This document shows positions 13,719 to 62,600 of a stretch of 64,000 bases of DNA, one piece after another. The position numbers and the translations under genes were made by a program. Where the stretch lies: positions 248,001 to 312,000 of the forward strand of contig JAEHOE010000118.1 of assembly GCA_016858145.1 (NCBI GenBank), read 5' to 3'. The notes beneath the pieces are model-generated. The model did no database searches. It was not told where the DNA came from and saw only the letters and a list, made by a program, of their open reading frames with translations. The first letter of the stretch is position 1, and each line of letters opens with the position of its first letter. The stretch is from Edaphochlamys debaryana. Lineage: Eukaryota; Chlorophyta; Chlorophyceae; Chlamydomonadales.

Positions 13719-16700
13719 CCCTCCCCACCCACCCTCCCCACCCACCCTCGTGCCCCGGCTGTAGCCCGGGTCGCTGATGCGCCCAGTGCCGGGCAGGGAG
13801 GCCCCGCCCTGGGGCCCCGCGCCGCCGCTGCTGCCCCCCGCGAGGCCGGTTGACGAGTTGCGCCCCCGCGGCAGCCCCCCGCCCGACACGCCGCCCTCGG
13901 GGCCCGCGCCCTCCCGCCCCGCCAGCGCCGCAGCCCCGTATGAACCGCCCGAGGCGGCTGCGGCGGCTGCGGGGAGCGAGACGGCGCCGCCGCCGGAGCC
14001 CGCCAGCAGGCGAGGGTCCGTGCTGCGGAGGGGGGCGGGGGGTAACGAGAGGGGAGGGAGGGGGTACGGCACATGGTCACATGGGGTAAGGCTTGGCTGG
14101 GTAAGGAGCTACTGGGCAGCAGGGCCGAACGAGAGGCAGTACAGGCAGTACAGGCAGTACAGGCAGTACAGGCAGTACAGGCAGTACACCCCACCTGAGG
14201 AAGGCCCGGATGTCGTCCGTTGTGAAGGCGGCCTGGGCCAAGGCAATGGCCACCTGAGGGGTGGGGGGTTGGGGGAGGAGAGGGAGAGGCATGACTCAGA
14301 CTACGGGGCTACGAGGGAGAGCCGGGGTGATCCGACCTGTCGTACACCGCCGCCCGCCACATGCATGCCCTTGGCAGCCCCTCCCTCCCCCCCTCCCTAC
14401 CATTGCCGGGTCCTGCGCCACCGCGAAGTCCAGGGAGGGCAGTGCGCCGCTGCCGCCCGCGCCGGATAGCACGGAGGAGGCGCGGCTGCGGATAGAGGCC
14501 TGGGGGGGGGGGGGTAGGCAAAGGGGTGGGAAGCGGCGTGTGGGAATGGTGTAAGGGAAGGAGGCTCCACTCCTCTCCAAGCAAGACGGCGCAGCTCCGC
14601 ATCTCCCAGAGCGTCCCATTAGCCAGCCTTCCCCCTGACATCCCGCAGCCCCCTCCTGGCGCTGAGGCACGCGGCCTTGCACCCCGTCATCACCCTCTGT
14701 TCGCCCCCCTTCCCCCGACTCCCCACCTGGTGTGAGAAGAAGGCCTCCTTCATTGACGCCAGCTTGGCGGGGGGCAGCAGTGACACAGGGGGGGGTGCGG
14801 GCGCGGGGGCGGCCCGGGCGCCCCCCCGCTCGCGCTTGGGCGACTGCCCGTCCCCCCGGCCCCCCGTGCCAGGATCGCTCTGCGTCCCCGCCGGCGGCTG
14901 AGAGTTGGCCAGCGAAACCGCGCGGAGCCGGGAAGGCGAAACGTCGCGGCCCGTGTTGGGCCCGGATCCGAGTCCAGATCCGAGCCCGTCCGGAAGCTGC
15001 AGGGAAGCTGCCAGCGCCGCCGCGCCGCCGTCGCTGCCCGTGCTGTTCTCGCCCCGCATGGGGGGTTCAGAGAATGCCGACTCGGAGGGGGGCGGGAGGG
15101 AGGAGGCGGGGGGCGCGGGCTGCGGCAGCGGCAGGCCGGGGATGGCCATGAGCTGGCGGATGACGTCGGATGAGTAGCCGGCGTCGTGCAGGGCCGCCGC
15201 CACCTCGGCCAGGGTGACGGCGTCTGGGGGGGAGGGGAGGAGGGGCAGGGGGTCGGGGGTAGGGGCAAGAGGGGGTTGAGGGATGGGCACGAAGAGAGGA
15301 AAAAGCCAGGCAAGGGCGCATCACACGCACCTGCCCACCCCCACCCACCCACCCCCACACCGCCCAACGTTCCATCCCCTCTAACCCCCCCAGCCCCCCT
15401 CCCACCGATGTCCTCTGCCAGCTCGTTGCCCTCGGGGCTGAACACCTTTTTGACGCGCTCTCGGCTGAAGCCGGGCGCCCGCTCCAGTGCGGCCCGCAGG
15501 GAGTGCGCCAGGGCGGGGGACACACCGCCCATGGGGCTGGGGGGTGGAGGGGTGGGTGGAGGGACGGGTGGAGGGGGGGTGGAGGGGGCGTGGGTGGGAG
15601 GGGGCGGCCGAGTGGTGTTTAGGTGGGAGGAAAGGAGGGAAGGAGGGAAAGGGAGCCCATTCCTCCTGGTGCCAATGGACGGCCCAGGCCCCTTCGTTCA
15701 AGCGCCTCCCACACCCCATGCCCTCCACCTCCCCCCCCACACACAGGGCCTCACCGGCAGAACATGCGGATGGTTGAGGCGGGGAAGTTGGCAACAGACA
15801 TGGCGGCAACCACCTGGGGGGGGAGGAAAGGGGAGACCGTGAGAACAGGTGAGGAGATGGTATCGAGTTGTGGGGGTTGGAGGAGTCAGCTTACAGTCCG
15901 CCCTACGCCCATGCTCGCCACCCCACCCCACCCTGGTCCCCCACCCCCGCCCTCCCACCCCCTCCGCCCGCAGCCCCGAGCCGTCCCCCGACACGCAAAA
16001 CACACACGCTTCCCCTCACCCCCCCTGCCCCCCCACCTGCGCCAGCCTCAGCGGCCCCACGTCCGCCCGCAGCCCCGTGCCGTCCCGCTTGATCATGCGC
16101 GCCATCACGTCTCGCCCGTACCCCGCCGCCAGCAGCGCCTCCCGCACCGCCCCCGCCACGGGGGGGGGCAGCGCTGCGGCGGCGTCGTTGTGGGGCGTCA
16201 CCGAGGGCGGGGGGCGCAGGAAGTGGCGGATCTGGTCGGCGGTGGCGCCGGAGGCGGCCAGCGCGAAGCAGACCGTGGCGAGCTGAGGGATGGGTAGGGG
16301 AGGGGGGAAGAGGGACGAGGGGGCAGGGGGAAGAGGGGGCGGGTTGGACAAGGAGTGTGCGCGGCGCCTTGGCTGCCACGGCTCCCGGGCCGTGTGCCCC
16401 TTTGCGCCGTGCGCCGCACTGCCCCCGCCCGCTACCCGCACCTGCAGCGGCGATGCGGTCTGGAGCACCACGTTGCCAAAGTTGGTGTTGTTGGCGGGGC
16501 CCAGCAGAGCCTGGGGTGGGTGGGTGGGGGGTGAGGGTGGTATCGGAGGAGCACGGGTGGAGGGCCGAGGTCCCGATCGTGGAGTCCCATCCCCCAGGGA
16601 TCTCCCCTAGCCCCTGCCCCCCCCCACCACCTTGAGCTCCGCGTGTCCGAACCCCGCCGCCAGCAGCGTGGCGCGTACGGCAGCTGCCGTAGTGGTGTCG

Positions 16701-19700
16701 AACTTGCCGTACTCGGATCCGCCGTGCGGGAGCAGGAAGTACCGGACCTGGCGGGTGGAGAGACCAAGGGAAACCCGCGTCAGGAGGGATGTGGTATGTG
16801 GCAGACCCTCACTTCCCCAGCCGGGTTGCTGTCCCCCATCCCTCCTCCCCCCCCTTTCTTGCCTCCCCCTGCCTTCCCCCCCCCCCCCCCCTCTGCCCCC
16901 CTTACCTGTGCCGGCTTGAAGCCCTGGTTGGCCATATGCTGACCTCCCCACACACCCCTCCTTTCCCCCCCCCTTTCCCCTCCCCCTCTTGCCTCCCCCC
17001 CCTCTGCCCCCGTTACCTGCGCCGGCGTGAAGCCCTGGTTGGCCATATGCTGACCCACTCGCTCCACGACCCGCGGGTCGGCGTGGGGCGTCATGCCCCG
17101 CCCGTCGGGCCGGATCATATCGGCCAGGGCCCGGCTGCTAATGCCACAAGATGCCGCCACGTTCCGTACATCCATGACCCCCCTCGAATCCAGGGCCTCT
17201 GGAACCAGGGCCATAGCGGATAGGAGCACCGTAAGGCCGAGGGCGGAGGCGGCGGTGGCGGCGGCGGAGCCGCCGGCGGGGTTGAAGGGCTGCGGCGCGC
17301 CGGTTGCGGCGGTGGCGGCGGCGAGGGCGGCGGCTGCGGTGGCTGCGGTGAGGGGCTTGGAGGTGGGGTTCATGGCGGGGAGGGACATGCCGGTGGGGGA
17401 GGCGGTGGCGGCGGCGGCGGAGGCGGCGATGGCGGTCAGCAGGGGAGTGAGCAGGCCGCGGCTGCCGGCGGTGGCGGGGGGCGCGGCGGCGGCGGCGGCC
17501 GAGTTGGTGACGGGGGAGGGGCCCAGGAACTGACACAGCTGGCCGGTGGAGAAGCCGGCCTGGGGTGTGTGTGGGGCGAGTCGGATGAGTGAGTAAAAGA
17601 TGGCATGGGAGAGGATGTCGACACGACGTCCGCCCCTAGCGCGGACGCCGCGGCAACTCCCCTGCCCCCTGCCCCCAAACGCCCCTCCCCCCCTCCCCCA
17701 CCCCACCCCACCCCACCCCACCCCACCCCACCCCACCCCACCCCACCCCACCCCACCCCACCCCACCCCACCCCACCCCACCCCACCCCACCCACCCCAC
17801 CCCACCCCACCCCACCCCACCCCACCCCACCCCACCCCACCCCACCCCCCACCTGGCTCAGTGCCGCCGCCATCTGCGCCAGCGTAGTGGCGTCCACCAC
17901 GGGCCCCGGGCCCGAGTGGTCCCGGCGGAGGACCAGCGCCAACTGGCGGCGGGAGAAGCCGCAGTCCTGGGGTAGGGGGTGGGGGGTGGGGGAAGCAGAG
18001 AGAGGGACATCAGGTGACGGCCCCGCAAGGGACGCTGCAGTGTGCGGAGGGCAAAGCAGGTGGAGCTTGAAGTCAGGGGAACGAACCCCAAACCCTCCCC
18101 GGTACGCAGAGCATGAGGTAACGTCCCCATGCACACCTCTCTCCCCCCTCCTGCCCCCCGCCCCCCACCGCCACCCCCACCAGGAGCGCCTCGTTGATTG
18201 AGCCCAGCGTGTCGGGCGTGAGCGCGGGCACGGGCGGCCCCGTCGTGAGCTGGATGCGGATGAGGTGCGCGGGCCACCCGGCCGCCGCCATGGCCGCCAC
18301 CAGCATGGCGCAGGACTCGGAGTCCCAGTCGGGGTCCAGGCGGCGGCGGTCGGAGGCGAAGAGCGACTCCAGGTGCGCGTCCGTGAAGCCGGAGGCCTGC
18401 AGGGGGGGGAGGGGGAGTGGAGGGGGGAGGGTTCCCACGCGAGCACGGCAGCCGGGCGAGAATGCAACCCGCCGCCAGCCCCAGAAACCCCAGCCCCTAA
18501 CCTTGCTTTCTCTCCAATCGGGCCCTCCCCGTTCGGCACAACCAGGCCCCCCACCCCCTACCCCAGTGACGGTACCTCCCGGATGCCCCCTCCCTCCCCC
18601 GCCCCCCCCCCACCTTGAGCAGCGCCCGTATGAGCGCCAGCAGCGAGGGTGTGATGTGGTCGAACACGTCCACCCCCGCAGCCGCCTCCGCCGCCTCCTC
18701 GGGGTCCACCTGCCCCGCGTCAAGGGCGTCCTGGGGTGGGGGGTTAGGGATGGGGGGGGAGAGGGAGGGGGGTACTGTTTGATACGTCGGGGGGAAGGAG
18801 GAGGGGGGGGGGGATTGCAGGGGTGACACTGGTGTGGGGGACCGGTGGTGTTGGGGAAGGGGGTGCAGAAGATGGCAGAGGCACGGCTGATAGGAGGGAG
18901 AGGGGGGGGGCAGGGGTTGAGCACCGGCGTTGTGTGGATGCGGGCGCGGAGCCTGGTGGCAAGCACGACTCGGAACAGCCCGTTGCCTGATGACGCCTGG
19001 GCCTGGTAAGCGAGCCGGCCCGCGTCCCTGCCGGTGACCCTGGCTCCAGGGGCTCACCTGTGCGGCCGCCACCACCGGCTGAAGGAAGAAGCGGCGGATC
19101 TGAGGGTGGAAGAGGGGGGGCGGGGGAGGAGAGGTGAGAGACGAGGAGGCATGCGGCGTTGGGAGGCAGCAAGCGCACTGCAACCACTGCACCCGGCTGC
19201 GCCCCCCGCCCCCCACGCAAGCCTGTGCCCCGCCCCAGGCCTTCCCCCTTGCGCACCGCCCCGATCACCCCTGCGACGTTCATCGTTGTCCCCATGCCCA
19301 ACCCCCCAACCCCGCACCTGGGCGGGTGAGAAACCCTCGTACGCCAGGCCGCGGGTGATTCGCTGCGTGACCTGGGTGTGTGTGGGGAGGGCGTGGGGAG
19401 GGGGAAGGAAGGCACAAGGAGGTGTTGAGGCGAGAGCAGGAGGGACACGCACATGGGGCCACCTGGCCTACGCTACCGCTACTAAGCTACCCTCATCCTA
19501 GTAGGTGGGCGACCCCCCCCTTTCCCCCCTCCTTTCTCATGTCCCCCTCCACACGCCGCCGCTTACTATGCGCACTGGCACCTGGTTATCGCGCATCAAC
19601 CCCGAGCACCTAACCACACACCTGGTGGTCCGAGGGCAGCCAGGGGCGCACGGGCGCGGGCGGAGGCGCTGAGGGCGCCAGGCCCGAACCCAGCATGTGC

Positions 19701-22700: not shown

Positions 22701-25700
22701 CTGCACCAGGGGGCTGCCGGCGAAGCTGCCCGCCACACCCGCCACATTGGCCGCCCAGCCGGGGTGCGCCTTCCCACCCGCCTGCAACCCCAACCCCCCC
22801 GCCCCCCCCCCCTGAGCTGCCAGGTTGAGTCCGGGCGGCACGGGCACGCCGTAGGGCGGCCCCGGCTGCCCGGTCTGCCCCGGGATGCCGGACCCGGGGG
22901 CGTACGAGTTGGCCCGGGATACGTCCGGCATGAGGAATGCGCGGATCTGGGAGGGCTTGAACATGGCTTCGACCAGGGTGGAGCCGACCTGTCAGGGGGG
23001 GGAGGGGAGGGGAAGGGGGGTTTGCAGCCATTGGCACGGTCGTTGCTAAATCCAGCCCGCCCAAAAACTCCCCTTCCCATCCTCCCCAGTGCCCCGCGCG
23101 CCTCTCCCCTGCACCCATCCCCCCCCACACCCTCGATCGCTCCCCTCCACCCCCCAGCCCCCCAAACCGCCCCCCCACCTGCGCCACGATGCCCGCCCCC
23201 GCCTCCGGCGCCACCCCCGAGAAGTCCGGCAGCATGGGCACCACGCCCGCCTCGGGGATGATGAAGCGGTTGGGGGAGCCGTTGAGGCCGGCCTGGGGGG
23301 GGGGAGAGGGAGGGAGGGAGGGGGGGAGGGAGGGAGGGGGGGAAGGTCGGCGGTGCGGGCCTGAAGCGCTGAACTGGGTTGGCGCTGGACAACAACAATG
23401 TTGTGAGTAACCCCATCAAACACGCAGAAGCAGCGCACCACCTCCACCCTCCCCCCCCCACCTGCTCGATGGCGTTGTTCATGGCCGAGATCGTGGTGAC
23501 ACCCGCCCCGCCTGACACGCCCTGACACGCAAAACACACGCACGTTTCCCCCCCCTCCCCCCTCCTTCCCCCCTCCCCCCCACCTGCTCGATGGCGTTGT
23601 TCATGGCCGACAGCGTGGTCACGGGCAGCGGCTGCGCCGCCCCCCGCACCACGTCGTAGCGCAGGAAGCGGCGGATGAGGTCCACGCCCATGCCGGCACG
23701 GACCAGGGAGGCGACCAGGCGGGCGAGCTGCGGGTGGGGTGGGGTGGTGAGGGGTGGTGGGGGGATGGGGTGGGGGTGGGGTGGGGTGGGGGTGCAAAAG
23801 AATGCAGGATGTAATGGGAGGGTCATGGACTGAGGCACGGCTCCTACCCCGTCCACTGGCTTCAGGCCCCTCCTCGCACCACCCGGCTGCTCCACCCCAC
23901 CCCACCCCACCCCCCACCCCCTCCCCCACCCCCTCCCCCACCCCCACCCCCCACCCCCTCCCCCACCCCCTCCCCCACCCCCTCCCCCACCCCCTCCCCC
24001 ACCCCCTCCCCCACCCCCTCCCCCACCCCCTCCCCCACCCCCTCCCCCATCCCCCACCCACCCCCCCACCCCCCATCCCCTCCCTTCCCTCCCCCTCCAC
24101 TCACCGTGACCGCCCCCACCCCGTCCTGCAGCGCCGATCCGTCCCCCACCAGCACCGCCCCCGTCAGCTCGTCCTCACTGAAGCCCTCGGACAGAAGCGC
24201 ATCGCGGACGGACTGGAGCAGGGCTGCGTTGTGCGTGTGGAGGGGGAAGAGCGGGGGGGTGGGGGGAGGGAGGTTAGAGGGGAGGGGAAAGATGGGACAG
24301 GAGCGCGTCGCGGACAGACTGGAGCAGGGCTGCGTTGGGGGTTGGTGCAGGAGGGGCGAGGGGTGCGTGAGTGTGTGGCGGGTGGTATGTGGCGTGGGGG
24401 GGTGGACGTAAACGCGGGAAACGCTGGGAACGGATGTCAAAAACCCGCATACTAACAAAACCGCAAGTGCCCTCCAACCCGAAGCCCCCAGCCCCCACCC
24501 CAGCCCCGCCCCACCCCAAGCCCCGCACCCATCCCCACCCGGCTCCAGGGGGGGCACGGCCGCCGCGTCCGCCCCCATTGCGTGCACCATCTGCTGCGCC
24601 GTGAACCCCGCCATGGCCATGGCCTCGGCCGCCTCCGCGAGGTCGGGGCCGCTCATGGCGAGGCTGAGGGTGCCGTCGGCGCGGAGGAGGCCCGCGGCGG
24701 CGGCGGGGGTCAGGCCGCCCCTGGTGTGTTGGAGGGCGGGGTTGAGGGGAGGGGTCGAGGGGGAACATGCTCCTTGCAGCCCCGGTTACGGCACCCGGCC
24801 CTACCTCTCTGCCATACCCTCCCTTGCCACCAACCCCCGTGTGACCACCCCTCCTTTCGCCCCCACCTGTGCAGTGCGTCAATGAGGGCCGTGGAGGCCG
24901 CGGGGGCGATGAAGCGGTGCACCTCCAGGGGGGTGAAGCCCGCGGCCTCGAGGGTGGCGGACATGGTCTTTGGGGGGGGAGGGGGAAGGCAGGAGGAGGT
25001 AGGGGGGGTTGGTTGAAGCTGGGCGTGTGCCGTCGCCATTCAGCAGCCCCAGCTGTACGGGCACATCGGTACGTACGACACCGTACGACACTGCACCCAC
25101 CTGGATCGTACGGATGTCGGCCGCCCATGTGCGGACCAGATCGATCTGCTCCGCCATGCCCGCCTGGGGGTGGGCGGGCGGCAGGGGCGTGCGAGGGTGG
25201 GATGGGTGGAGGAAGATTTGACTCCAGTACAGTGCTCCATGCAAACCACGAGCGCCTCCCCTTTCCTCCCGCGTGGCCGGCGCCCCACCGCAGGACCTGG
25301 CCGCCTCAAAAGACACCCGATTATCGCCTGCGCTGCCCACCTCCTTGCCCCCCCCCCCCCCCCCCCTTACCTTGTCCAGTGCGTGCTTCATGGCGTTGAG
25401 CTGCACGTCGCCCCCGCCCCCCGACACGCAAAACACACACTTCCCCCTCCCCTCCCCCCCCTCTCCCCCCCCTTACCTTGTCCAGTGCGTGCTTCATGGC
25501 GTTGAGCTGCACGTCGCCCCCGCCCCCCGACACGCAAAACACACACTTCCCCCTCCCCCCCCCCCCCTCCCCCCCCCCTTACCTTGTCCAGTGCGTGCTT
25601 CATGGCGTTGAGCTGCACGTCGCCCCCGCCCCCCGACACGCAAAACACACACTTCCCCCTCCCCTCCCCCCCCTCTCCCCCCCCTTTACCTTGTCCAGTG

Positions 25701-28700
25701 CGTGCTTCATGGCGTTGAGCTGCACGTCGCCCCCGCCCCCCGACACGCAAAACACACACTTCCCCCTCCCCTCCCCCCCCCCTCCACCCCCCGACCTTGT
25801 CCAGTGCGTGCTTCATGGCGTTGAGCTGCACGTCGCCCCCGCCCCCCGACACGCAAAACACACACTTCCCCCTCCCCTTTCCCCCCCTCTCCCCCCCCTT
25901 ACCTTGTCCAGTGCGTGCTTCATGGCGTTGAGCTGCACGTCACCCCCGCCCCCCGACACGCAAAACACACACTTCCCCCTCCCCTCCCCCCCTCTCCCCC
26001 CCCCTTACCTTGTCCAGTGCGTGCTTCATGGCGTTGAGCTGCACGTCCCCCCCGCCCCCCGACACGCAAAACACACACTTCCCCCTCCCCTCCCCCCCCT
26101 CTCCCCCCCCCGACCTTGTCCAGTGCGTGCTTCATGGCGTTGAGCTGCACGTCGCCCCCGCCCCCCGACACGCAAAACACACACTTCCCCCTCCCCTCCC
26201 CCCCCTCTCCACCCCCCGACCTTGTCCAGTGCGTGCTTCATGGCGTTGAGCTGCACGTCGCCCCCGCCCCCCGACACGCAAAACACACACTTCCCCCTCC
26301 CCTTCCCCCCCTCTCCCCCCCCCTTACCTTGTCCAGTGCGTGCTTCATGGCGTTGAGCTGCACGTCACCCCCGCCCCCCGACACGCAAAACACACACTTC
26401 CCCCTCCCCTCCCCCCCTCTCCCCCCCCCTTACCTTGTCCAGTGCGTGCTTCATGGCGTTGAGCTGCACGTCACCCCCGCCCCCCGACACGCAAAACACA
26501 CACTTCCCCCTCCCCTCCCCCCCTCTCCCCCCCCCTTACCTTGTCCAGTGCGTGCTTCATGGCGTTGAGCTGCACGTCACCCCCGCCCCCCCGACACGCA
26601 AAACACACACTTCCCCCTCCCCTCCCCCCCCTCTCCACCCCCCGACCTTGTCCAGTGCGTGCTTCATGGCGTTGAGCTGCACGTCGCCCCCGCCCCCCGA
26701 CACGCAAAACACACACTTCCCCCTCCCCTTCCCCCCCCTCTCCCCCCCCCTTACCTTGTCCAGTGCGTGCTTCATGGCGTTGAGCTGCACGTCACCCCCG
26801 CCCCCCGACACGCAAAACACACACTTCCCCCTCCCCTCCCCCCCCTCTCCCCCCCCTTACCTTGTCCAGTGCGTGCTTCATGGCGTTGAGCTGCACGTCA
26901 CCCCCGCCCCCCGACACGCAAAACACACACTTCCCCCCTCCCCTCCCCCCCTCTCCCCCCCCCTTACCTTGTCCAGTGCGTGCTTCATGGCGTTGAGCTG
27001 CACGTCGCCCCCGCCCCCCGACACGCAAAACACACACTTCCCCCTCCCCCTCCCCCCCCTCTCCCCCCCCTTTACCTTGTCCAGTGCGTGCTTCATGGCG
27101 TTGAGCTGCACGTCGCCCCCGCCCCCCGACACGCAAAACCACACACTTCCCCCTCCCCTCCCCCCCCCCTCCACCCCCCGACCTTGTCCAGTGCGTGCTT
27201 CATGGCGTTGAGCTGCACGTCGCCCCCGCCCCCCGACACGCAAAACACACACTTCCCCCTCCCCTTTCCCCCCCTCTCCCCCCCCTTACCTTGTCCAGTG
27301 CGTGCTTCATGGCGTTGAGCTGCACGTCACCCCCGCCCCCCGACACGCAAAACACACACTTCCCCCTCCCCTCCCCCCCTCTCCCCCCCCCCTTACCTTG
27401 TCCAGTGCGTGCTTCATGGCGTTGAGCTGCACGTCGCCCCCGCCCCCCGACACGCAAAACACACACTTCCCCCTCCCCTCCCCCCCCTCTCCCCCCCCCG
27501 ACCTTGTCCAGTGCGTGCTTCATGGCGTTGAGCTGCACGTCGCCCCCCGCCCCCCGACACGCAAAACACACACTTCCCCCTCCCCTCCCCCCCCTCTCCA
27601 CCCCCCGACCTTGTCCAGTGCGTGCTTCATGGCGTTGAGCTGCACGTCGCCCCCGCCCCCCGACACGCAAAACACACACTTTCCCCCTCCCCTTCCCCCC
27701 CTCTCCCCCCCCCCTTACCTTGTCCAGTGCGTGCTTCATGGCGTTGAGCTGCACGTCACCCCCCGCCCCCCGACACGCAAAACACACACTTCCCCCTCCC
27801 CTCCCCCCCCTCTCCCCCCCCCTTACCTTGTCCAGTGCGTGCTTCATGGCGTTGAGCTGCACGTCGCCCCCGCCCCCCGACACGCAAAACACACACTTCC
27901 CCCTCCCCTCCCCCCCCTCTCCCCCCCCTTACCTTGTCCAGTGCGTGCTTCATGGCGTTGAGCTGCACGTCACCCCCCGCCCCCCGACACGCAAAACACA
28001 CACTTCCCCCTCCCCTCCCCCCCTCTCCCCCCCCCTTACCTTGTCCAGTGCGTGCTTCATGGCGTTGAGCTGCACGTCGCCCCCGCCCCCCGACACGCAA
28101 AACACACACTTCCCCCTCCCCTCCCCCCCCTCTCCCCCCCCTTACCTTGTCCAGTGCGTGCTTCATGGCGTTGAGCTGCACGTCGCCCCCGCCCCCCGAC
28201 ACGCAAAACACACACTTCCCCCTCCCCTCCCCCCCCTCTCCCCCCCCTTTACCTTGTCCAGTGCGTGCTTCATGGCGTTGAGCTGCACGTCGCCCCCGCC
28301 CCCCGACACGCAAAACACACACTTCCCCCTCCCCCCCCCCCCCCCCTCCACCCCCCGACCTTGTCCAGTGCGTGCTTCATGGCGTTGAGCTGCACGTCGC
28401 CCCCGCCCCCCGACACGCAAAACACACACTTCCCCCTCCCCTTTCCCCCCCTCTCCCCCCCCTTACCTTGTCCAGTGCGTGCTTCATGGCGTTGAGCTGC
28501 ACGTCACCCCCGCCCCCCGACACGCAAAACACACACTTCCCCCTCCCCTCCCCCCCTCTCCCCCCCCCTTACCTTGTCCAGTGCGTGCTTCATGGCGTTG
28601 AGCTGCACGTCGCCCCCGCCCCCCGACACGCAAAACACACACTTCCCCCTCCCCTCCCCCCCCTCTCCCCCCCCCCGACCTTGTCCAGTGCGTGCTTCAT

Positions 28701-31700
28701 GGCGTTGAGCTGCACGTCGCCCCCGCCCCCCGACACGCAAAACACACACTTCCCCCTCCCCTCCCCCCCCTCTCCACCCCCCGACCTTGTCCAGTGCGTG
28801 CTTCATGGCGTTGAGCTGCACGTCGCCCCCGCCCCCCGACACGCAAAACACACACTTCCCCCTCCCCTTCCCCCCCTCTCCCCCCCCCCTTACCTTGTCC
28901 AGTGCGTGCTTCATGGCGTTGAGCTGCACGTCACCCCCGCCCCCCGACACGCAAAACACACACTTCCCCCTCCCCTCCCCCCCTCTCCCCCCCCCTTACC
29001 TTGTCCAGTGCGTGCTTCATGGCGTTGAGCTGCACGTCGCCCCCGCCCCCCGACACGCAAAACACACACTTCCCCCTCCCCTCCCCCCCCTCTCCCCCCC
29101 CCGACCTTGTCCAGTGCGTGCTTCATGGCGTTGAGCTGCACGTCGCCCCCGCCCCCCGACACGCAAAACACACACTTTCCCCTCCCCTCCCCCCCCCTCT
29201 CCCCCCCCCTTACCTTGTCCAGTGCGTGCTTCATGGCGTTGAGCTGCACGTCGCCCCCGCCCCCCGACACGCAAAACACACACTTCCCCCTCCCCTCCCC
29301 CCCCTCTCCCCCCCCCCTTACCTTGTCCAGTGCGTGCTTCATGGCGTTGAGCTGCACGTCGCCCCCGCCCCCCGACACGCAAAACACACACTTCCCCCTC
29401 CCCTCCCCCCCCTCTCCCCCCCCCTTACCTTGTCCAGTGCGTGCTTCATGGCGTTGAGCTGCACGTCGCCCCCGCCCCCCGACACGCAAAACACACACTT
29501 CCCCCTCCCCTCCCCCCCCTCTCCCCCCCCTTACCTTGTCCAGTGCGTGCTTCATGGCGTTGAGCTGCACGTCGCTGAGGCGGGAGCCCGAGGCCGCCTC
29601 CAGCGCCTCCTCGGGCGGGAACAGGAAGGATACGATGGTCTTGGACTCGAAGCCGGCGGCGGCCAGGATCTGGGGGTGGAGGCGGCGGGGGGGGGAGGTA
29701 GAGGGGGGGGAAAGGAGGGGGGCTTGGGGGAGATCTTTGACGATTTAGAGGTGTTATAGCCCAGGGGGGCTTGGGGGAGAGAGGGTGCTGTGGAGGAGGA
29801 GGTGGGGCTGGGGACAGGGCGCACAAGGGCTGGGTTGGAGGCGGTGAGCGGGGTATGCACCCTTCTTCCACCAACTGAACCCCATTGCACCCCTCCAGAC
29901 GAGGGCCATTACAGTTACAGCAGGCGTGGAGGCGCCCCTGACAGACTCCTCTCACATACACCACACCAACCTGCAGGGTCTCGCCGGGCTTTGGCTTGCT
30001 TACGGTTTCCTCGTTGGCTAACACCACACCAGCCCACCCGAACCTAGCACCCCGCTGCTCACGTCCGCGACCTTGGTCAGGATCTCTGGCGGCACGTCCT
30101 CCGTGAGCCCCAGGCCGTGGGGGGCGATGAGGTCGGGCAGCGCGGCGCCGCCCAGGTCCGCCTCCTGAGAGGGGTTAGAGGGGGTGTGTGCATGTGTGTC
30201 AAGGTGGTGTGTGGAAGGGGGGAGGCGGAGCTGCGCGGGCTTGCGAGGGCTGACTCAGGGAGGCAGCGGGTTGAGGGACAGGGGGGCAAGGCGTGCTCGG
30301 GCCACGGGCGGCCCAATAGCCCCCAGACAACCCCCATCCCTCACGACCGCCCCTCAGGGAGGAAGGGGTCAACGAGGGTGCTTCAGAGTCGGAGCTGGAT
30401 CGAGCCCCCCCATTCCGGCCAGTTCCTTAACCCCGTCTCCGAGCCCTGACCCTTCCAGCCCTCAGACCCCTCAAGCCCCATCCCCATTCCATCTCCCAAC
30501 CTCCCCGCACCTGCAGCGCCGCCCGCATGGCCGCCAGTGTAACGGGGTCCAGCAGCAGCTCCCCCTGCTGCACCCCCTCGCCCTCGCCCTCCTCGCCGCC
30601 GCCGTCCTCGCCGCCCTCCTCGCCGTTACCCCCCTCCTCCGTGCCCAGGCCCCCGGCGCCCGAGCCCCCGCCCTCCACCAGCAGATCACTCGGCTCGCCC
30701 CCCAGCGAGGGGGGCCCCGGGCCGGGCTTGCCCGCGCCCGGCGCGGCGGAGGGCTCGGCGGAGAGCAGCACCGAACCACCTGGCCCGAGCGAGGACGAAG
30801 CCGCGAGCGCCGAGGAATCCAGGGACCCGAGCGTCGCCTGACTCGCCCCCACGCCCACGGAAGAAGCCGACGGGTCCTCGCCCGCGCCCTCCGCACCCTC
30901 CATAGCGGCAAACAGCGCCGCACGCTGGGAGGGGTTGGCCATTGCCGCCATGGAGCCGGCGCGGGACCGGGAGCGGCCCAGCCCGGGCGCCGAGGCGGCG
31001 GCGAGGCCCGCCGCCAGGCCGTGCCGCCGCAGGCCCGTGGACCCCACCCGCTGGGCGGGCGGGAAGGCCTGGACGGGGGCTGGCCGCGGGCCGGTGAAGT
31101 CCGTCATGAGCAGTCGGATGTGGCGCGTGTTCATGCGCTTCATGTCCACAAGGACCTTGATCAGGCCGGCAAGCGTGCCCGAGCCGACCTGACAGGGTGG
31201 GGAAAGGGGGGTGGGGGTGGGGGGAAGATGGGGGGAGAGGGGGAGGGGAGAGGTAGCAGACAGGGGTGGACGGACGCCTGAGGCTCCACCACCACAATTC
31301 CTGCCCCGCCTCCCGAACTTGCCCGTACTCTACTTTCCGCGCCTGCCCCCAACCCGCCGAGCCCCACACCAGCCCTCCAGCTCCACCCAATCCCTCACAT
31401 CCAACCGCCCTATCCCCACACACACACCCCACCCATCCCGCCCCACCTGCTGTACGGCGATGGTGCCGTCCGCGCGCATGGCTCCCTCCGCCCCCGCCCC
31501 CACCTCCCCCAGGGCGTCAGTGACCGCCTCCCTCAGCGTGGCCAGGATGGGGGGTGGGCCCTCGCCGGGGTTGAGCTGGAAAGGGGGGGGGGGGTGAGAA
31601 AGAGTGGGTAAGGAGGGGGCGGGCGGCTTTTTCGAGGGTTCCCCACCTTCACCTGGCCCTCGACGCCCTTGTCCATGCGGCTGACTGCCACTGCAGACAC

Positions 31701-45733: not shown

Positions 45734-45779
45734 CGCCCGCGCCAGGGCCATGAATCTACCGGCAGCAAACACACACGTT
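45734..45779 (-). repeat. Exon-fragment duplication with junction motif (unit A)
   Basis: Positions 45734-45758 are a diverged copy of the MALARAL stretch of exon 45826-45923. Just upstream on the sense strand is GAACGTGTGTGTTTGC. The orthologous piece in unit B is 56066-56112, so this event predates the segmental duplication. Confidence 0.7.
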
Positions 45780-47465: not shown

Positions 47466-47579
47466 CGCGTGTGTTTTGCGTGCCAGGGCGGGGGGAGGGA
47501 CGAGTACTCGACCACACGCTCGACTACGGGGGGAAGGCGGGGCAGGTGGGGGGGGGGACGTGTGTGTTTTGCGTGTCGG
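47466..47579 (-). repeat. Duplicated exon start with junction motif
   Basis: Positions 47496-47525 copy the acceptor side and first codons ([12 protein letters not shown]) of exon 47214-47412. On the sense strand the copy is followed directly by GGCACGCAAAACACACGCG (47466-47484), the reverse complement of the motif found before copied exon ends. A second motif copy is at 47561-47579. Confidence 0.8.
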
Positions 47580-47760
47580 GGTGGGGGTGAATGAGAAGAG
47601 GGTGTCAGGGCCAGGGCGAGGGGGCACAGGACACCCTGGAGCCCTCCCCCCCCCGTTTCCCCCCCGCCCCCACCCACCCGCGTTCAGCATGTTCTCGGCC
47701 ATGGAGGCGGCACGGACAGTGATGGACACAGCCGTGGTGATCTGAGGGGGGAGGGGGAGG

Positions 47761-48406: not shown

Positions 48407-48434
48407 GGATTCCGGGATCCGGGATTCCGGGATC
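48407..48434. repeat. CCGGGAT short repeats in copy A intron
   Basis: Several tandem 7-8-bp CCGGGAT(T) units next to the remnant exon end at 48365-48390 (LSVRLE). This is absent from unit B. Confidence 0.85.
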
Positions 48435-49970: not shown

Positions 49971-50315
49971 GGGCACACACGACATGCTGGCTGCACCCGT
50001 AAACCTGTGAAGCCGGCTGTGCGCTGCCGCTGCACCTGAGCTTCACCCTTCCTGCCTGTCAGCGGCCCCTAGGGGTAGGGTGGGGTTTGTTGTCATGAGA
50101 GGATGGGTGCGTGGACAAGGAGTGAAGCGGAGACTGAGAGGCCTCACTAGCCTCACCCTGAGAGGCCGCACCCCACCCTACCCCACCCTCCCCGCCGCCG
50201 GTATCCCCGTGCCGGTATCCGTGCTAGTATCTCCACCCGCCAGCCGCCCCTCTGGTACCTCTGCTGACCGGACCCCACCCGCCTCCTCCTTCTCACGACC
50301 CCGCCCCCTTGCTGC

Positions 50316-53683: not shown

Positions 53684-56600
53684 TCAGGCGCTTGCGTCCG
53701 GCGCCTCCGCACCCGGAGCCCCCGCCGCCGGCCCTCCAGAAGCCACAGGGGCCAGCAGCGGCGGCGGCGGCGCGGCGGCGGCGCCACCGCCACCCCACGC
53801 CCCCGCCGCCCAGGCACGCTTCATAGCCACCGCCCCCGCCCGCGCCTCATCGAGCAACGCAACGCACCGACCCAGCGCCGCCCGCGCCGCCGCCAGCGAC
53901 GCCACGTCAGCAGCGGCGGCGGAGCCGCCGCCACCGCCACGGCCGCCGCCGCCGCCACCCTCGTCGTCGCTGCCGCCGCCGACACCGCCGCCGCCGCCGC
54001 CAGCGGCGCCCATGACCATGGCCAGATCGTCGACGGCGGCGCCGACGGTGCCGCCGCCGCCGCCGCCGGGGCCCCTGGCGGCGGCGGCTGCCTCCGCCTC
54101 CGCTGCGCGGTCCATCTCGCGGCGCAGCTCCTGAGGGGGTGGGGGACGGGGGTGGGGGCGCAGGAGCACAGAAGAGAAAGGTCATGACAGCGCAAGAGGT
54201 GTCTGCAAGACGAGCGCGCGCGATGGGGCTTAACGCCAAGCCCCTTCATGCTCCCCCTCTTCACAATCTCCCATTGCCCGCGCCCTGTGGGCCACCCCAG
54301 TCACGCAAAACACACACGCCCCCCCCGCCTCCCCCCCGCTTTTCCCCCACCATTCCCCCCTCTACCCCCCTCACCTGCACCATGCGCGCCACAGCGCACG
54401 ACCGCCCCGCCACCGCCGCCGCCAGCGCCGGCAGCGGCAGCGGCACGCCCGCGTCCCACTCCTCCCCCGTCCCCATCCCTCCGCCCCCGAAACTCATGCC
54501 CGCGCCGCCCCAGGGGCAGCTCCCGCCCTCTCCCTCTCCCTCCTCCAACAGAGGCTGCGACAACCCTCCCGCAGATGCCATGGCGCCGCCCCCCCGGCTC
54601 CGGCTGAGCAGCCGAGTCAGCCCCGCTCCGAAACCCGAGCCACCGCTGCGGGTGGGGGGCAGGGGCCCGCCGTGGGTGGGGGAAGGGGGGCTCCCGCCGC
54701 GGCCGTGGCCGGTCGAGTTGATGCGGGAGAGGCCGGGGCCGGGGGGTGGGGCGCGGCCGTTGGAGGCGAGGCGGGCCAGGGCGGCCTTGGCGGGGGCCTC
54801 GAGGAGGGCCTGGGGGGCGGGGGGTTGAGGTGAAGTGGGTGGGAAGGGAGAGGGGAGAGGGCTCTTGAGAGCGGCCTAACGGTGTGGTCGTCGCACTCCC
54901 CTCCTCTTCACGAGCCCTCGTGCCAGCAGCCCTGTCAGGACCCCTCCCTGTCAGGAGTCAGGACCCCCCCCTGTCAGGACCCCCCCCTGTCAGGACCCCC
55001 TCCCTGTCAGGAGTCAGGACCCCTCCCCCCTGTCAGGACCCCCTCCCTGTCAGGACCCCTCCCTGTCAGGAGTCAGGACCACCCCCCCTGTCAGGACCCC
55101 CTCCCTGTCAGGACCCCTCCCCCCCTAAGGACCGGTCAGGACCCCTCCCCCCTTCCTCCGGCAATCCCACTAACGATTCGATGCTCTCCCGCCTATCAGC
55201 TTCAAACACCCCCCTAAGGACCCCACCTGCACGCCCCCTCCGCCCCCCGCCGCCAGCGCCCGCAGCTGCCGCGCCGATGCCTCCCCCGTTGCGTCAACCA
55301 GGCGGCCGAAGGCGGAGCGGGGGGCGGCCAGCAGCGCAGAGGGGGAGTCGTACTCGACCACCTGGGGGGGGCGGGGTAGTGGGTTGGGGAGGGAGGGAGG
55401 GGGGAATGTTAAGGGGTCGGGGAAAGGGCGAGGAAGTCTTTAGGGGTGTGTGGTTTGGGGCAGGAGGTTCAGTTTTTCCCTCCTGGTTTGGGGTGTGGAG
55501 TCTGGGGGCGCGGGACACGTGACACGCAATACACACACGCCCTCCCCCCCCCCTCCCCCCCTCCTCTCTCCCCCCCCACCTGCCCCGCCTCCAGCACCAG
55601 GATGCACGTGTAGTCGATCACGGTGGCCAGCCCCCCGCCCACACACGCCCTCCCCCCCTTGCCCCCCCTTGCCCCCCCTTGCCCCCACCTGCCCCGCCTC
55701 CAGCACCAGGATGCGCGTGTAGTCGATCACGGTGGCCAGGCGGTGCGCGATGGCCAGCAGCGTGCGGTCGGGGAACTCGGAGCGGAGCGTGGACTGGGGG
55801 GGGGAAGGGGGGGGGTGAGAGGGGGATGGCCCAACTCAGCGCGCTGCACCGGAGTCTGCAGTTCGAGGGCTTTGCTGCGGTGGCTTCGACTGACCCCCTG
55901 CTACCCCTCCCCCGCCCCCATGCCCCACACCCCTTGGCCCCCTGCTGCTCCCTTTCCCTTTGCCCCCACCTGGATCAGGGCGTCTGTCTGCAGATCCACA
56001 TTTGCCGTGGCCTCATCTGCGTACGGCAGGATCTCGGTGAGGTACGGCACACCCACTTCCACTCAACGCCCGCGCCAGGGCCATGAATCTACCGGCAGCA
56101 AAACACACACGTTCTGCCCCCCCCTCTGCCCCCCTTTCTCCCCCCCGACCCCCACCCACCCAGCACCAGCACCCGCGCGGGGCTGAGCAGGGCCCGGGCC
56201 AGGGCCATGAGTTGGCGCTGGCCCGCGGACAGGGGGGCACCGCCCTCGGTCAGCTCACTGGGGGGGGGGGGGAAGAGGGCGGGGAGATAGGGGAAAGGGG
56301 AGGGGGCAGGGGGGGAAGGGGGGGGGGAGGGGGAGGGGGGTAGGAGAAAGGAGAGGGGTCAGAGGAAGCGAGGAGTCATTGCACCGGCCGATGCCCCATG
56401 CCTATGTCCCATGCCCCTCTAATAACTTCCCCCTTCCTTCAGCCCTGTGAGGGGACCCCCGGGGGTTTATCGTCCCCCCATTCGTCCCCCCGTTCGTTCG
56501 ATCTTCCCCCAAAGGACGCCCCCCGAAGACGCTCACGTGTCCAGCCCCGCCGGCCATGCCTCCACGGTGGGGGCCAGGTGCGCCCTCCGCAGCGCCGCCC

Positions 56601-59600
56601 ACAGCGCCGCGTCCGAGTGGGCCCCGAAGGGGGAGAGGTTGGTGCGGATGGAGCCGGCAAACAGCACCGGGACCTGACAGGGGGGGAGGGGGGAGAGGGA
56701 GTGGGGGAGAGGGAGGGGGGGGGAGGGGGAGGAGGGGAGAGGATGGTCGTGCGTTGCATCACTGGTTGCGAAGTTGCCCACCGGTCCCCAACCTAAGGGT
56801 CCCTGGCAAGCCCACATCAGGGCACCCACGTCCCGTCCACCCAGGTCACGCCCACGCCAGGCCCACCTCAGGCCCGCTTGAGGGCCCAGGTCGGGCCCAG
56901 GCGCACCTGGGGGATGAGGCTGAGCCTGGGCCTGAGCTCCCTCAGCGCCATGCGGCCGATGTCCAGTTCGTCGATCAGGATGGAGCCACGCTCGGCCTTG
57001 GGGGGGGGGGGGGAGGCGTGGGGAGAGGAGTGAGGGGAGAGGAAAGGGGGGGGGGGGGGGGGGAGGAAAGGGGGGAGAGCCGGAAAGAAGGCAGGAAGCG
57101 TGGGCGGCAAGGTAATGAAAGCGGGTCGGGCCGTGCCTCTCGCTCTCTCCTCGAGGCTGGAGGTGCTGCTGTGCCCTTCACGAATGCCCTCCCCCTTTCC
57201 TCCCTCCCTTTATTCCCCCTCCTCCCCTCCCCCCCCTCACCTCCACCAGCCTGAACAGGCAGCCCAGGAGCGTCACGGAAAACACACACGCCCTGTCCTG
57301 CTTCCCCCCCCCTTTCCTCCCTCCCTCCCCCCCCTCACCTCCACCAGCCTGAACAGGCAGCCCAGGAGGGAGCTCTTGCCGGCGCCCGTGCGCCCCACAA
57401 CGCCGATCTTTGGGAGGGAAGCGGGGGGGGCGGGGGGGGGAAGAGCAATGGGAGGTGGGGAGAGGGTCAAGCAGGCTTAACACAGTCAAACACGGACCTT
57501 GAGGGAAAAGAAAACGGGACCGCCCCCCTCCAGCCCCCCTCTCCACCCCCCCCTCCCCCCCCTCCCCCCCCTCCGCTAACGTGTCCCATGCAGGTCATTC
57601 CGTACACAGCCTCCGCCATATTGCTGCCGCGCTCTTCTCCGCACTCTGTTGCTTCACATAACTAGCTCGCGCGCCATCATGCACGCCATTGCACCGCACT
57701 CCCTCTTTTCTTTTGTGGCCAATTCTAACCTCTTGCTCCTTTGTGCCCCGCCCCTCTTTCGCGGCGCGTGTTTCTCGCGGTGGGTCTCGCTGTCTTCGAC
57801 TTCAGGTACGTATGGGTTCAGGTTGGGAGTTCAGTTCTGCGTCGGTGCGCGCTTTGCGGCGATGCACGCACGCCAGCTGATCACCACAAAACACACCACA
57901 CCACATTTACTCTAGCCTAGCCGCTCTAGACTACGCCACTTTCAGCGCAGACTACGCTCTCCAGTCGCCGCTCGGAGGTCGGACCTTTCGCTCTGGACAT
58001 CGGTGCGCATCGGGCTCGCTGGCTGCCGCTCCTACTCTCCTTCCGTTCTCCAGTTTGTCAGAAAATCACCCCCTCCCCCCCTCCCCCCCCCCACCTTGTC
58101 CCTTGCCTCCGCCCTGAAGCTGACCCCCCTCAGCACCAGGGGCAGTCCCTCCCCGCTCCCCCTCCCCCCCCTGCCCCCCACCTTGTCCCTTGCCTCCGCC
58201 CTAAAGCTGACCCCCCTCTGCACCAGGGGCAGTCCCTCCCCGCTCCCCCCCCCCCCCCCCCCCCCCCACCTTGTCCCTTGCCTCCGCCCTAAAGCTGACC
58301 CCCCTCTGCACCAGGGGCAGTCCCTCCCCGCTCCCCCTCCCCCCCCTCCCCCCCACCTTGTCCCTTGCCTCCGCCCTAAAGCTGACCCCCCTCAGCACCA
58401 GGGGCAGGCCGGGGCGGTACCGCAGCCACACGCCCCGGAACTCCACCGCCCCCTCCTGCGGCCAGCCGGGGGGCGGGGGCAGGCGGGGGGGCGCGCCGGG
58501 CGGGGGCGGCTGCTCCTCGGGGGGGAGGGACGAGTACTCGACCACACGCTCGACTGGAGGGGGGGGAAGGGAGTGGAGCGGGGAAGAGGGTGTTCAGGGC
58601 TGCTCGTGTAAAGGCCAGGAAAAGCGTAGGCGCGGTGATTAGCCGGCCGGAAGAGGGTGAGTGTGGAGGGCTCGTGAATTAGGGAAGTAGAAGAGGGTGT
58701 CAGGGCCAGGGCGAGGGGGCACACGACACCCTGGAGCCCTCCCCCCCCCGTTTCCCCCCCCCGCCCCCACCCACCCGCGTTCAGCATGTTCTCGGCCATG
58801 GAGGCGGCACGGACAGTGATGGACACAGCCGTGGTGATCTGGGGGGGGAGGGGGTACCGGTTTTGGCCAAAGGGGTTCAGGGGTTGGCGAAGTGGGTCAA
58901 CACAAACAAGGGTAGCTCATGACTAGTCCCTGTCCCCTCGTCTCCCTTCGTCTCCCACCGTACCTGCAGCGCGTAGCTCATGACTAATCCCGCGGCCCCC
59001 GCGGACGCCCGCTGCTCCACCGCCACCGCCCCCGCCAGCAGCGCGGCGGCAGCGCCCAGGACCTTCGGGAGGGGGCGGGGGACCGGGGGGGGGACATGGG
59101 CGTCAGGGTGTGTTTTGCCGACGCGTGCCAAGGTGTGCGCCACACCCGTACCAGCATTGATGGCTTCAAACCGGGGTCCTTCTCTGGGCCTGGCGCAGAC
59201 GAAAACACCCTAGAACCCACGGATACGGTACCCCCAACAATCCCCCACCTCCCCCAAGCCTCTCTCCCGCCACCCACCTCCAGGCGCACGCTGAGCCCCC
59301 GGTTCCCGGACCCAGGGTTCGCGCGCACAGGGCCAGGTCGGCCCACTGCCAGCATACCGCCTAGTTAGTCCCTGCTCATCTTGATACTCGATAATTCTTG
59401 ATAATCCTGATACTCGATACTACTCGATACCTATATGTAACCTATATAACTACCTACACGCGACGTATACGGCATGCTGAGACGTACGCTTACCTCCAGG
59501 CGCACGCTGAGCCACCGGTTCATGGACTGACTGGCCAGGGCCAGGGCCGAGAGGGAGTCGAGCAGTCGGGCGGAGCGGGCCAGGGCGCGGGGCTGGGGGG

Positions 59601-62600
59601 GACGGAGGGGAAAGGGCGGGGAAGGGGAGGGGGCGTGTGTGTTTCGCGTGTGCGCGTAAGGCGACGGGGGCGGCGGCGGCGGAGGGGGTGAGGGGGTGAG
59701 GGGATGGCGGGAAGCTGCGTGGCAACCGGCCCCCGCTCCCCAACCGCCCTATCCAAACGCCCCCCCCCCCATTCCTCCCGTGTGCGTGGCTGCCCCGCCC
59801 CCAACGCTCATCCCTGGTTTAAGAGCAGCTCGGCCCTCCAACTCCCCCCGCTCGCCTGCCCCCCAGACCCCAAGGGTGACCCGCCCCCCCCCCCCACCTG
59901 CGCTCCGTAGGCTGTGTAGGTGGCAGTCCCCGCCAGCGCCTCCCCCAGGGCACTCAGCACGGGGGAGCGGGAGGCGGCGTCCAGGCGCTTGAGCTGGGGG
60001 GGGTAGGGGGTTAGGGGAGGGGAGGGGGCAGATAGTGAAAGGGTTGGGGGAGAGAAAAGGGGGAGAGGGAGGAGAGGGAGGAGAGGGAGGAGAGGGAGGA
60101 GAGGGAGGAGAGGGAGGAGAGGGAGGAGAGGGAGGAGAGGGAGGAGAGGGAGGAGAGGGAGGAGAGGGAGGAGAGCGTCTCCAGGACACTGGGTTGGCAT
60201 AAGTGGGGAGCTCGTCCCACCGGCTCTGTACACCCCCCTTCCCGTGCTCCCCCCCCCTTTCCTTGCCTGGCGCACTGATGCCTGGAAGTAGGCGTAGAGC
60301 CAATAGAAGCCCGCCAGGATCACCACCAGGGCCTGACAGGGGGGGGAGGTAAGGAGGGGGGGCAAGCGTATAAGGTAAGGGGCCTGTCAGGGGCGGGGTG
60401 AGGGGAGAGGGGGCAAAGGGGGAAGAGGGGCTAAGCAAGGATCACCACAAGGGCCTGAGATGGTGGGTGGGTGGGTTAAGGAGAGGGTCTGGCTTAGGGG
60501 TAAGCAGGGGAGAGAGAACATCCGGCTCAGGGTTAAGAAGTAAGGGAAGAATAAGGAGGGGACGGGGCCCCGTCGAGGGGGCCTGGCGGGGCCAAGATGA
60601 GGTCGGCCCCGCCAGCCGCTGTATCTGGGGCTATATCTGTATCTGGTACGGAACAATCCTCCACCCTTCAACCGCCACCTCGACCCTCAATCCCCCCTTC
60701 CCCACCATCCCCTTACCGGCAGTGCAAACGGCGCCACCGCCCCAACCAGCACCATAGTAGAGAGCAGCGTCAGGAAGGACCTGGGGGGGGGGAGAGATGA
60801 GGGAACGGCCTTGGGAGGGGCCCAGGAGAGAGGCGAGGCCGGGCACTGTAGGGAATTGGGGGGGCGGGAGGGAGTGAGGGCACGGCATCGAGGGGGGCTA
60901 AGAAGAAAGAGGAGCGCGGGAGCTGCAGGAGGGGACCCTGTGGCCTGGGAGGGGGGCAGCATGAAAGATGGGGCCGCAGCTGCTTACCGCCTGGAAGGAC
61001 ACGCCAGCCGACGCCCCATGCAGCCGTCTACGGGTGTGTGGCCCACCTTGCCAACCCCTCTATCCCACCTCTCTGCCTCCCTCCACCCCCCTCCCCCCGA
61101 CGGGACCCCCCCTCCCCCCCCTCCTCCCTCACCGTGCCGCCATGGCCAGCGCTGAGGCCAGGTTGCGGTCAGTGCCTCCCCCCCATCCCTCTACCCCCCT
61201 CCCTCTTTACCCCCCTCCCCCCTCGCCCTGACAGGGCCCTCCCCCCCCTCACCGTGCCGCCATGGCCAGGGCCGAGGCCAGGATGCGGTCAGTGCCTCCC
61301 CCCTACCCCTCTACCCCCCTCCCTCTACCCCCCCTCCCCCCTCCCCCTGACAGGGCCCTCCTCCCCCCCTCACCGTGCCGCCATGGCCAGGGCCGAGGCC
61401 AGGTTGCGGTCAATGTCGGCCGTGTCCCGCGTGAGGCGGTTCACCACCCGGCCCAGGGGGGTGGCGTGGAAGAAGGCCATGCGGGCGGACAGGAGGGAGG
61501 AGAGGAGGCGGGCGTGGAGCTGGGGGGGGGAGGAAGGGGGAGAGGGGGGGGGAGAGGCGGGGGGAGAGGGCAGGGGAGAGGGGGGGGGGAGAGGGTGTTT
61601 GAAGCTGATAAGCGGGAGAGCGTCGAATGGTTAGTGGGGGAGAGGGGGGGAGGGAGGCAGGTAAGGGAGAGGTAAGGGGGAGGGGAGAGGGAGGTCCGGG
61701 GGAGGGAGGAGAGGAGGCGGGCTTGGAGCTGGGGGGGTGGGGGAGGAAGGGGGAGACGGGGGGGAGAGGGGGAGAGAGGAGGAGGGAGGAGAGGAAGCTG
61801 GGCACTGTGAACTGGGATAGGTGGGATAGGTGAGCAAAGTGGCCGCGGTCGCTAACCGTTTACAACTGAACCCGAGGGGGGTCACGCCCGGTGGGGTTGT
61901 GACGAATCCCAGCACCGGCCCCTGGGCCTCCGCCTCCCCCCAACCCCCTTATCAGCTTCAAACACCCCCAAACCCCACCCCGCCCCCCGCCTCACGTGCC
62001 GCGCCGCCCCCAGGCCCATGCGGCTGATGTCGAGGGTGGTACCGGCCTGGGGGGTGGAGATGGGCGGTGGGAGGAGATGGGGAGGGGTGGGGGGTGGGGG
62101 GGGGTCCGTCTAGGAGGGCAGCACGGTCGGGGCTCCCCTCCCCCGCTCACTATCAAACCCTGCACCCCTTCCCCGCCTCCCCCACCACCCAACTGCAAAC
62201 CCCTAACTCCGACACCGAAACACACACACGGTTTCCCCCCCGCCCCCCCCCCCCACCTGCACCGCCAGCTGCACCCCGCTGATGGCCGCGTACACCCCCA
62301 GGTACCACATGGGGGAGCGGCCACCGGGGGAGGAGGCGTCCGTGGAGCCTTGGGGGGGGGGGTTGGGGGGGGGGGGGGGGGGGGGGGGGGTTGGGGGGGG
62401 GGGGGGTTGGGGGGAGCGTGTGTGCTTCGCGTGTGGGGAGGGGGAGGGAGCGGTACCACATGGGGGAGCGGCCGGAGGCGGAGGAGGCGTCCATGGAGCC
62501 TTGGGGGGGGGGGGGGAGAGGTGAAGCGGCGTTTGGGGGGAGAGGGCAGATTGGCAGGGTGGGTGGCGGCACCCGCAGCCCGAGCCGTCTCGCCCCCGCT

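What the first reader, a model, noticed from the sequence alone, without database searches (positions are those of the whole stretch)
15963..62502. A recurring junction motif at partial exon duplications in several genes
Copies of exon ends in introns are preceded on the sense strand by GTGTGTGTTTTGCGTGTC or close variants (15989, 23523, 25367-29574 array, 45763, 56096, 57271). Copies of exon starts are followed by its reverse complement (47466, 62416). The motif therefore sits at the inner breakpoint, between copied exon and unrelated intron, in two unrelated genes. A mobile element terminus or a sequence that triggers template switching would both explain it. I know of no described element with this layout.
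Basis: partly seen in the sequence, partly recalled or inferred. Interest (0 to 1): 0.85.

Follow-up and report, generated by a model that had tools for sequence, protein, structure and literature searches.

The report
Splice-edge inserts carrying a 27-base tag
In this green-alga-like genome, short pieces of new DNA about 113 bases long have repeatedly been inserted just inside introns, each repeating the neighbouring exon edge and often carrying the same short tag, which points to an unusual and little-described way for introns to grow.

Summary
The 18-mer occurs 49 times in the window at up to 3 mismatches versus 0 in shuffles, and 66 times genome-wide at up to 1 mismatch versus 0 for a reversed control. 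It is one variant of a dispersed family. A second subfamily has a 27-nt block, GCGTGTGTGTGTTTCGTGACGCGTGGG, with a sharp distal end and no longer element visible behind it (28 loci).

Layout: exon edge, ~40 nt G-rich intron edge, block, 0-39 nt filler, copy of the exon edge. It sits at both splice sites, on the strand reading exon to intron (19 donor, 15 acceptor). In 24 hand-picked two-unit loci the new DNA is 113±8 bp: 40±11 bp of duplicated target plus 73±10 bp of insert, lengths negatively correlated (r=-0.68). In 24 of 33 testable loci the second unit lacks the motif, so there the motif came with the insert.

The motif is neither necessary (about half of 38 G-junction duplications lack it) nor sufficient (36 of 70 loci show no copy). 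Best reading: a nick in the splice-edge G-run, extension on a C-rich template, rejoining ~40 nt upstream. DNA versus RNA template is unresolved.

The parts
15990..16007 (-). motif, 0 mismatches; followed by a ~16-nt copy (about 15972-15987) of the exon side
23524..23541 (-). motif, 1 mismatch; copy of the exon edge at about 23466-23497, source about 23588-23619, period 122
25348..29575 (-). tandem array of 39.6 units of 106 bp: exon edge + GTAAGG/GTCGGG + G-rich + motif
44145..44162 (-). motif, 2 mismatches, ~62 nt inside the intron; only a degenerate exon copy follows (paralogous position 54300)
45267..45284 (-). motif, 1 mismatch, single unit with no exon copy (paralogue 55521)
45750..45790 (-). 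degenerate motif (one base shorter than at 56093) followed by a degenerate exon copy
47467..47484 (+). motif on the antisense strand at an acceptor; exon-start copy beyond it (between 47485 and 47530)
47560..47577 (+). second motif of the same acceptor, end of the replaced intron part
54300..54317 (-). motif, 1 mismatch (paralogue of 44145)
55521..55739 (-). motif at 55521-55538 plus an extra exon-edge unit (55532-55630 versus 55640-55739, period 109) whose junction holds only a truncated motif GCGTGTGTG; the extra unit is absent in paralogue A
56093..56110 (-). motif-like block, 5 mismatches ungapped, followed by a degenerate exon copy
57218..57368 (-). 98-bp insertion relative to paralogue A: exon-edge copy (57218-57270 versus 57316-57368) with motif at 57272-57289
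59635..59652 (+). motif, 2 mismatches, no copy detected
62418..62435 (+). motif, 3 mismatches, acceptor side; source 62303-62322, copy 62454-62473, period 151
16902..17055 (-). exon-edge duplication without the motif, period 111
24189..24363 (+). exon-edge duplication without the motif, period 106
58158..58410 (-). three exon-edge units without the motif (paralogue A has two, 47075-47269)

Best explanation
These are splice-edge insertional duplications. SHOWN: about 113 bp of new DNA sits just inside the intron. Reading from exon to intron it consists of a G-rich stretch, often the conserved block, a filler, and a second copy of the last 21-56 nt of the exon with its splice site. INFERRED: a nick or break occurs in the short G-run next to the splice site, on whichever strand is G-rich. 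The G-rich 3' end anneals to a C-rich strand elsewhere (most likely another intron edge that carries the block, often nearby) and is extended through the block. It then rejoins its own locus about 40 nt upstream in the exon, duplicating the edge. If it rejoins downstream instead, the intron edge is replaced or lengthened without a copy. Some units are later repeated in tandem. The block is then a passenger that spreads as filler; whether it also marks the switch-back point is open.
For: Strand-symmetric at donors (19) and acceptors (15), which argues for a DNA-level process. In 24 of 33 testable loci the second unit lacks the motif (9 have it; background 2 of 576), so there it came with the insert. 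In 24 two-unit loci: target duplication 39.8±10.8 bp, insert 73.2±9.9, total 113.1±8.4, r=-0.68, 3 of 20000 permutations as tight. In 21 such loci the first 35 nt of the intron average 72% G in the inserted unit but 53% in the second, pre-existing one. Same-length duplications without the motif exist (107.9±13.6, 20 of 21). Paralogue pair: a 98-bp insertion at 57272, a 109-bp insertion with truncated block at 55587, and a replaced intron end at 47467-47577. One exon (L095) is flanked on both sides, inverted, by block copies sharing a rare variant. Loci cluster: subfamily 2, 8 pairs within 100 kb among 31 loci against 0.66 expected, 0 of 5000. Paper passages describe small tandem duplications made at breaks with complementary 3' overhangs of 43 bp or more (PMC8355091).
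Against: Local copying is not supported for subfamily 2: near pairs are no more alike than far pairs (0.728 versus 0.731, 2792 of 5000). It is supported only in the mixed, mainly subfamily-1 set (0.736 versus 0.662, 0 of 2000; 2 of 2000 without C118 but with 7 near pairs). Subfamily-1 clustering disappears outside C118 (1 pair against 0.13, 619 of 5000). The sharp distal end of the 27-nt block is easier to explain with a template of fixed length. The constant total length has no explanation in this model. In the paralogue pair, loss in A by deletion between the repeats cannot be excluded. In 9 of 33 loci the second unit has the motif, so there the motif may have come first. Nicks, breaks and annealing were not observed.
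Confidence: 0.45

Rival explanations
1. Target-primed retroposition of a very short non-autonomous element. An RNA starting with CCCACGCGUCACGAAACACACACACGC and ending in a C/U-rich tail is reverse-transcribed from a nicked G-run, and the staggered second nick gives a 22-63-bp target duplication.
For: Defined 27-nt block with a sharp distal end in 28 loci, including 7 positions outside the search pattern at 75-96% identity. Fixed polarity, target duplication, genome-wide dispersal and no similarity gradient with distance in subfamily 2.
Against: The G-rich stretch that would be the tail is not conserved beyond G-richness. About half of the splice-edge duplications of the same length lack the block. 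Target duplications and inserts compensate in length. 36 of 70 loci have no detectable duplication. Loci cluster. No Rfam family matched above its cut-off in 4 loci, and no RNA source was found.
Confidence: 0.25
2. A short DNA transposon or introner whose terminus is the block, with splice signals inside the element.
For: Both intron ends can carry the block in inverted orientation (intron in L045), and dispersal is in introns only among the loci I looked at.
Against: No partner terminus: L079 is a complete ~120-nt intron with the block at one end and an ordinary acceptor at the other. No conservation outside the block. The duplicated stretch is 22-63 bp, not the 3-9 bp reported for introners (PMC9860276 passages). 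The introns pre-exist without the block in the paralogue at two places.
Confidence: 0.08
3. Plain tandem duplication and minisatellite growth in intron edges that already carried the block, with breakpoints just after it.
For: 9 of 33 testable loci have the motif in the second unit too. C222:64593 has one unit with the block and no copy, while the related exon at C222:57.2-58.1 kb has 8 block-bearing units. The 40-unit array.
Against: 24 of 33 second units lack the motif, and in several of them the intron leaves the G-run quickly, so the block cannot have been there before. It also does not explain dispersal to unrelated genes.
Confidence: 0.12
4. A functional intron signal (splicing enhancer or pairing of intron ends), kept by selection, with exon copies as side effects.
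For: Conserved position ~40 nt from the splice site.
Against: Present as the reverse complement in the RNA at acceptors (15 of 34). Single introns carry it at one end only (L079). Rare in the genome. No stable DNA fold (G-quadruplexes not modelled).
Confidence: 0.05

Closest known systems
Small tandem duplications from repair of staggered breaks (CST-Pol alpha fill-in; PMC8355091, passages seen)
   Same: Duplicated stretch of tens of bases; a G-rich single strand could be a CST substrate (recalled, not in the passages I saw)
   Different: Here a 52-88-bp insert with a recurrent block lies between the copies, the site is always next to a splice site, and the total length is nearly constant
Templated insertions and template switching (Pol theta end joining, MMBIR)
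   Same: Short copied segments joined at a break, partial blocks, local sources in some cases
   Different: The same block recurs at dozens of unrelated loci in one polarity
Introners (PMC9860276, passages seen)
   Same: Repeated sequence spreading in introns of a eukaryote
   Different: Does not create the intron, no terminal inverted repeats, long target duplication, only an intron edge is shared
Non-LTR retroposons (SINE/LINE, target-primed reverse transcription)
   Same: Fixed polarity, variable-length target duplication, low-complexity stretch on the priming side
   Different: 27-nt body, no known RNA source, half of comparable events lack it
Intron gain or growth by tandem genomic duplication (for example PMC4974935, listing and start of abstract only)
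   Same: Duplicated stretch spans a splice site
   Different: No new intron; an existing intron grows and gains a decoy splice site

Membership tests
Introner | Near-identical whole introns | tested here: not met
   In 28 subfamily-2 loci only the 27-nt block is conserved; flanks are G-rich without conserved order
Introner | Intron absent at the site before insertion | tested here: not met
   In the paralogue pair the intron exists without the block at 46.9 kb and at 58.6 kb; two loci only
Introner / DNA transposon | Terminal inverted repeats and short (3-9 bp) target duplications | tested here: not met
   One block per edge, ordinary other end in L079; duplications of 22-63 bp
SINE/LINE retroposon | Target duplication flanking the insert | tested here: met
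   24 two-unit loci, 39.8±10.8 bp; but 36 of 70 loci show none
SINE/LINE retroposon | RNA source gene and transcript | not tested
   No RNA data; Rfam on 4 loci gave only 5 sub-threshold matches; U6 comparison not convincing
SINE/LINE retroposon | Tail of uniform composition on the priming side | tested here: inconclusive
   G-rich side present but variable in sequence
Tandem duplication by staggered-break repair | Direct duplication of tens of bases with intact flanks | tested here: met
Tandem duplication by staggered-break repair | Dependence on the repair enzymes | not testable with these tools
   Needs mutants
Minisatellite | Head-to-tail units in one place | tested here: met
   Array 25348-29575 and arrays listed; most loci are not arrays

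The most novel reading that the evidence does not exclude
A dedicated process in this lineage inserts a fixed ~113-nt dose of newly made DNA at splice-edge G-runs and uses a 27-nt block as its template head, so the smallest known self-spreading intron unit makes introns grow from both ends and copies working splice sites into them.
Probability: 0.25. Interest if true: 0.85.

Novelty: new variant of a known kind. Interest (0 to 1): 0.6.

Why it matters
How introns lengthen and how decoy splice sites arise are open questions. Here the events are recent enough to read: target, insert and duplication are separable, present on both intron ends, and the new DNA has a near-constant length. A sequenced laboratory alga with this pattern would let the enzyme and the template (DNA or RNA) be tested directly. 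It also warns gene annotators: copied exon edges with intact splice signals sit inside introns.

Tried and rejected
U6 snRNA as source: I recalled that U6 holds GACACGCAAA. The genome's U6 matches the first variant weakly (6 of 300 shuffles as good, the best of four comparisons) and the second not at all. Rfam on 4 loci gave no match above a family cut-off. Single-strand folding as DNA gave nothing unusual (G-quadruplexes not modelled). A longer element behind the block was not seen. Local-donor spread as a general rule: for, against. In arbitrarily chosen sequence (4 x 8 kb, L091-L094) I found 0 splice-edge G-junction duplications and only 2 unrelated repeats, so the density in the window is not typical.

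Mended after checking: 'second unit lacks the motif in 22 of 24' was counted without gaps on loci picked by eye, leaving out loci with motif-bearing second units. The full count with gaps is 24 of 33 testable of 34 (21 of the 24). Rows dropped: one search skipped motifs within 230 bases of a sequence start (most of L096-L115) and array-internal copies. One search used 34 of the 43 rows (8 arrays or periods over 150, and L085 with an unclear boundary, left out), with splice boundaries set by eye. The tally contains 3 misplaced rows in the 'none' class and 1 doubtful row in the 'motif' class. Lists are capped at about 100 places. In one search I dropped three segmental-duplicate partners.
Full report
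Genome and setting. The window is C118:248001-312000 of a 141.89-Mb, 502-contig assembly, 70% G+C in the window (base counts). Size, contig number and intron richness fit Edaphochlamys debaryana (142.14 Mb, 527 contigs, 67.1% GC; PMC8226300, passages only). That naming is my inference.

Observation. The 18-mer occurs 49 times in the window at up to 3 mismatches against none in 100 shuffles. In the genome there are 66 hits at up to 1 mismatch against 0 for the reversed control, and 506 against 270 at up to 3, so 3-mismatch hits are about half noise. About 40 of the 66 are the array at 25348-29575.

It is a family. Adding the G-rich flank to the pattern gave 119 hits against 4 and revealed a second subfamily, GCGTGTGTGTGTTTCGTGAC, with 116 hits against 0 at up to 2 mismatches. 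The shared core GGGGGRRCGTGTGTGT has 157 hits against 47. In 28 subfamily-2 loci the conserved block runs over 27 positions, seven of them outside the search pattern (75-96% identical), and stops sharply. Upstream there is only G-richness.

Architecture. At the loci fetched the order on the motif strand is exon edge, splice dinucleotide, about 40 G-rich bases, block, filler, then a copy of the exon edge. Of 70 loci with a G-rich upstream, 34 have a scored adjacent copy. Of the 14 further subfamily-2 loci fetched last, 8 have one at score 15 or more. For 34 loci with splice boundaries set by eye: splice to motif 40.0±8.3 nt, motif end to copied splice site 54.5±11.0, period 112.5±8.1, r=-0.68, 1 of 20000 permutations as tight; 19 donors and 15 acceptors. 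Period is not a product of the search range (45-260 bp), and duplications without the full motif have a similar one (107.9±13.6, 20 of 21 below 150).

Direction of change. In 24 of 33 testable loci the second unit lacks the motif, against 9 that carry it (background 2 of 576 windows). In 24 two-unit loci picked by eye, the duplicated target is 22-63 bp and the insert 52-88 bp. In 21 of them the inserted unit starts with 72% G on average, the second with 53%, and 7 of 21 second units fall below 50% against 0 first units. So in most cases both the long G-rich stretch and the block came with the insert. The tandem paralogues in the window show the same: a 98-bp insertion at 57272 and a 109-bp insertion with a truncated block at 55587 relative to the other copy, and an acceptor-side intron end replaced at 47467-47577. 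Loss in the other copy is not excluded.

Motif as driver or passenger. Controls: 49 of 596 motif-free G-tract ends have a strong local copy, against 20 of 45 motif clusters. But splice-edge duplications also occur without the motif (17 with, 2 partial, 19 without by script; about even after correction by eye), and many motif loci have no copy (36 of 70). The related exons on C222 (one block-bearing unit against eight) suggest that the block can also precede duplication. I therefore treat the block as filler that spreads, perhaps with a secondary role at the switch point.

Spread. Subfamily-1 loci are concentrated on C118 (46 pairs within 100 kb against 0.39 expected, but 1 against 0.13 without C118, not significant). 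Subfamily 2 is clustered without C118 (8 against 0.66, 0 of 5000); one of those pairs is the related exons on C222. Likeness of neighbours is raised in the first set and not in the second. One exon carries the same rare variant on both flanks in inverted orientation (L095). Evidence for local donors is therefore mixed.

Mechanism. Strand symmetry and the paralogue comparison favour a DNA-level event starting in the splice-edge G-run. The sharp block end leaves room for an RNA template. The compensation of duplicate and insert lengths to ~113 bp is unexplained by every model that I considered.

Literature. Searches in open-licence PMC papers returned nothing that I recognised as this pattern from titles and abstract starts; I read passages of four papers only. 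'Introner' does not occur in the main text of PMC8226300, and Edaphochlamys does not occur in the main text of PMC9860276; supplements were not available.

Noticed in passing
window 39600-49500 versus 49800-61000: Tandem segmental duplication of an ABC-transporter gene end (aligned blocks of 5.8 kb at 91.9% and 1.7 kb at 93.6%); Pfam ABC_tran in two joined peptides.
   Followed up: partly
window 57571-58051: About 480 bp in an intron of paralogue B without counterpart in A.
   Followed up: no
window 39651-39772 and 39873-40036: Self-complementary (inverted) repeats of 89% and 93% identity next to the duplication border.
   Followed up: no
window 2859-3021: Perfect 30-bp tandem repeat, 5.4 copies at 100%.
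   Followed up: no
window 13659-13722, 55151-55215, 61573-61638: Short dispersed repeat (65 bp at 97%; 67 bp at 90% inverted).
   Followed up: no
L033 925-1071: Tandem exon-edge units with a further block variant (GTGTGTGTGTTTTGGGAC) in the second unit too.
   Followed up: partly
G000 C54:466022-467464, C4:876637-877411, C20:51349-52085: More block-bearing arrays with periods of about 103, 126 and 119 bp; only the end of the C54 array was read (L113).
   Followed up: partly
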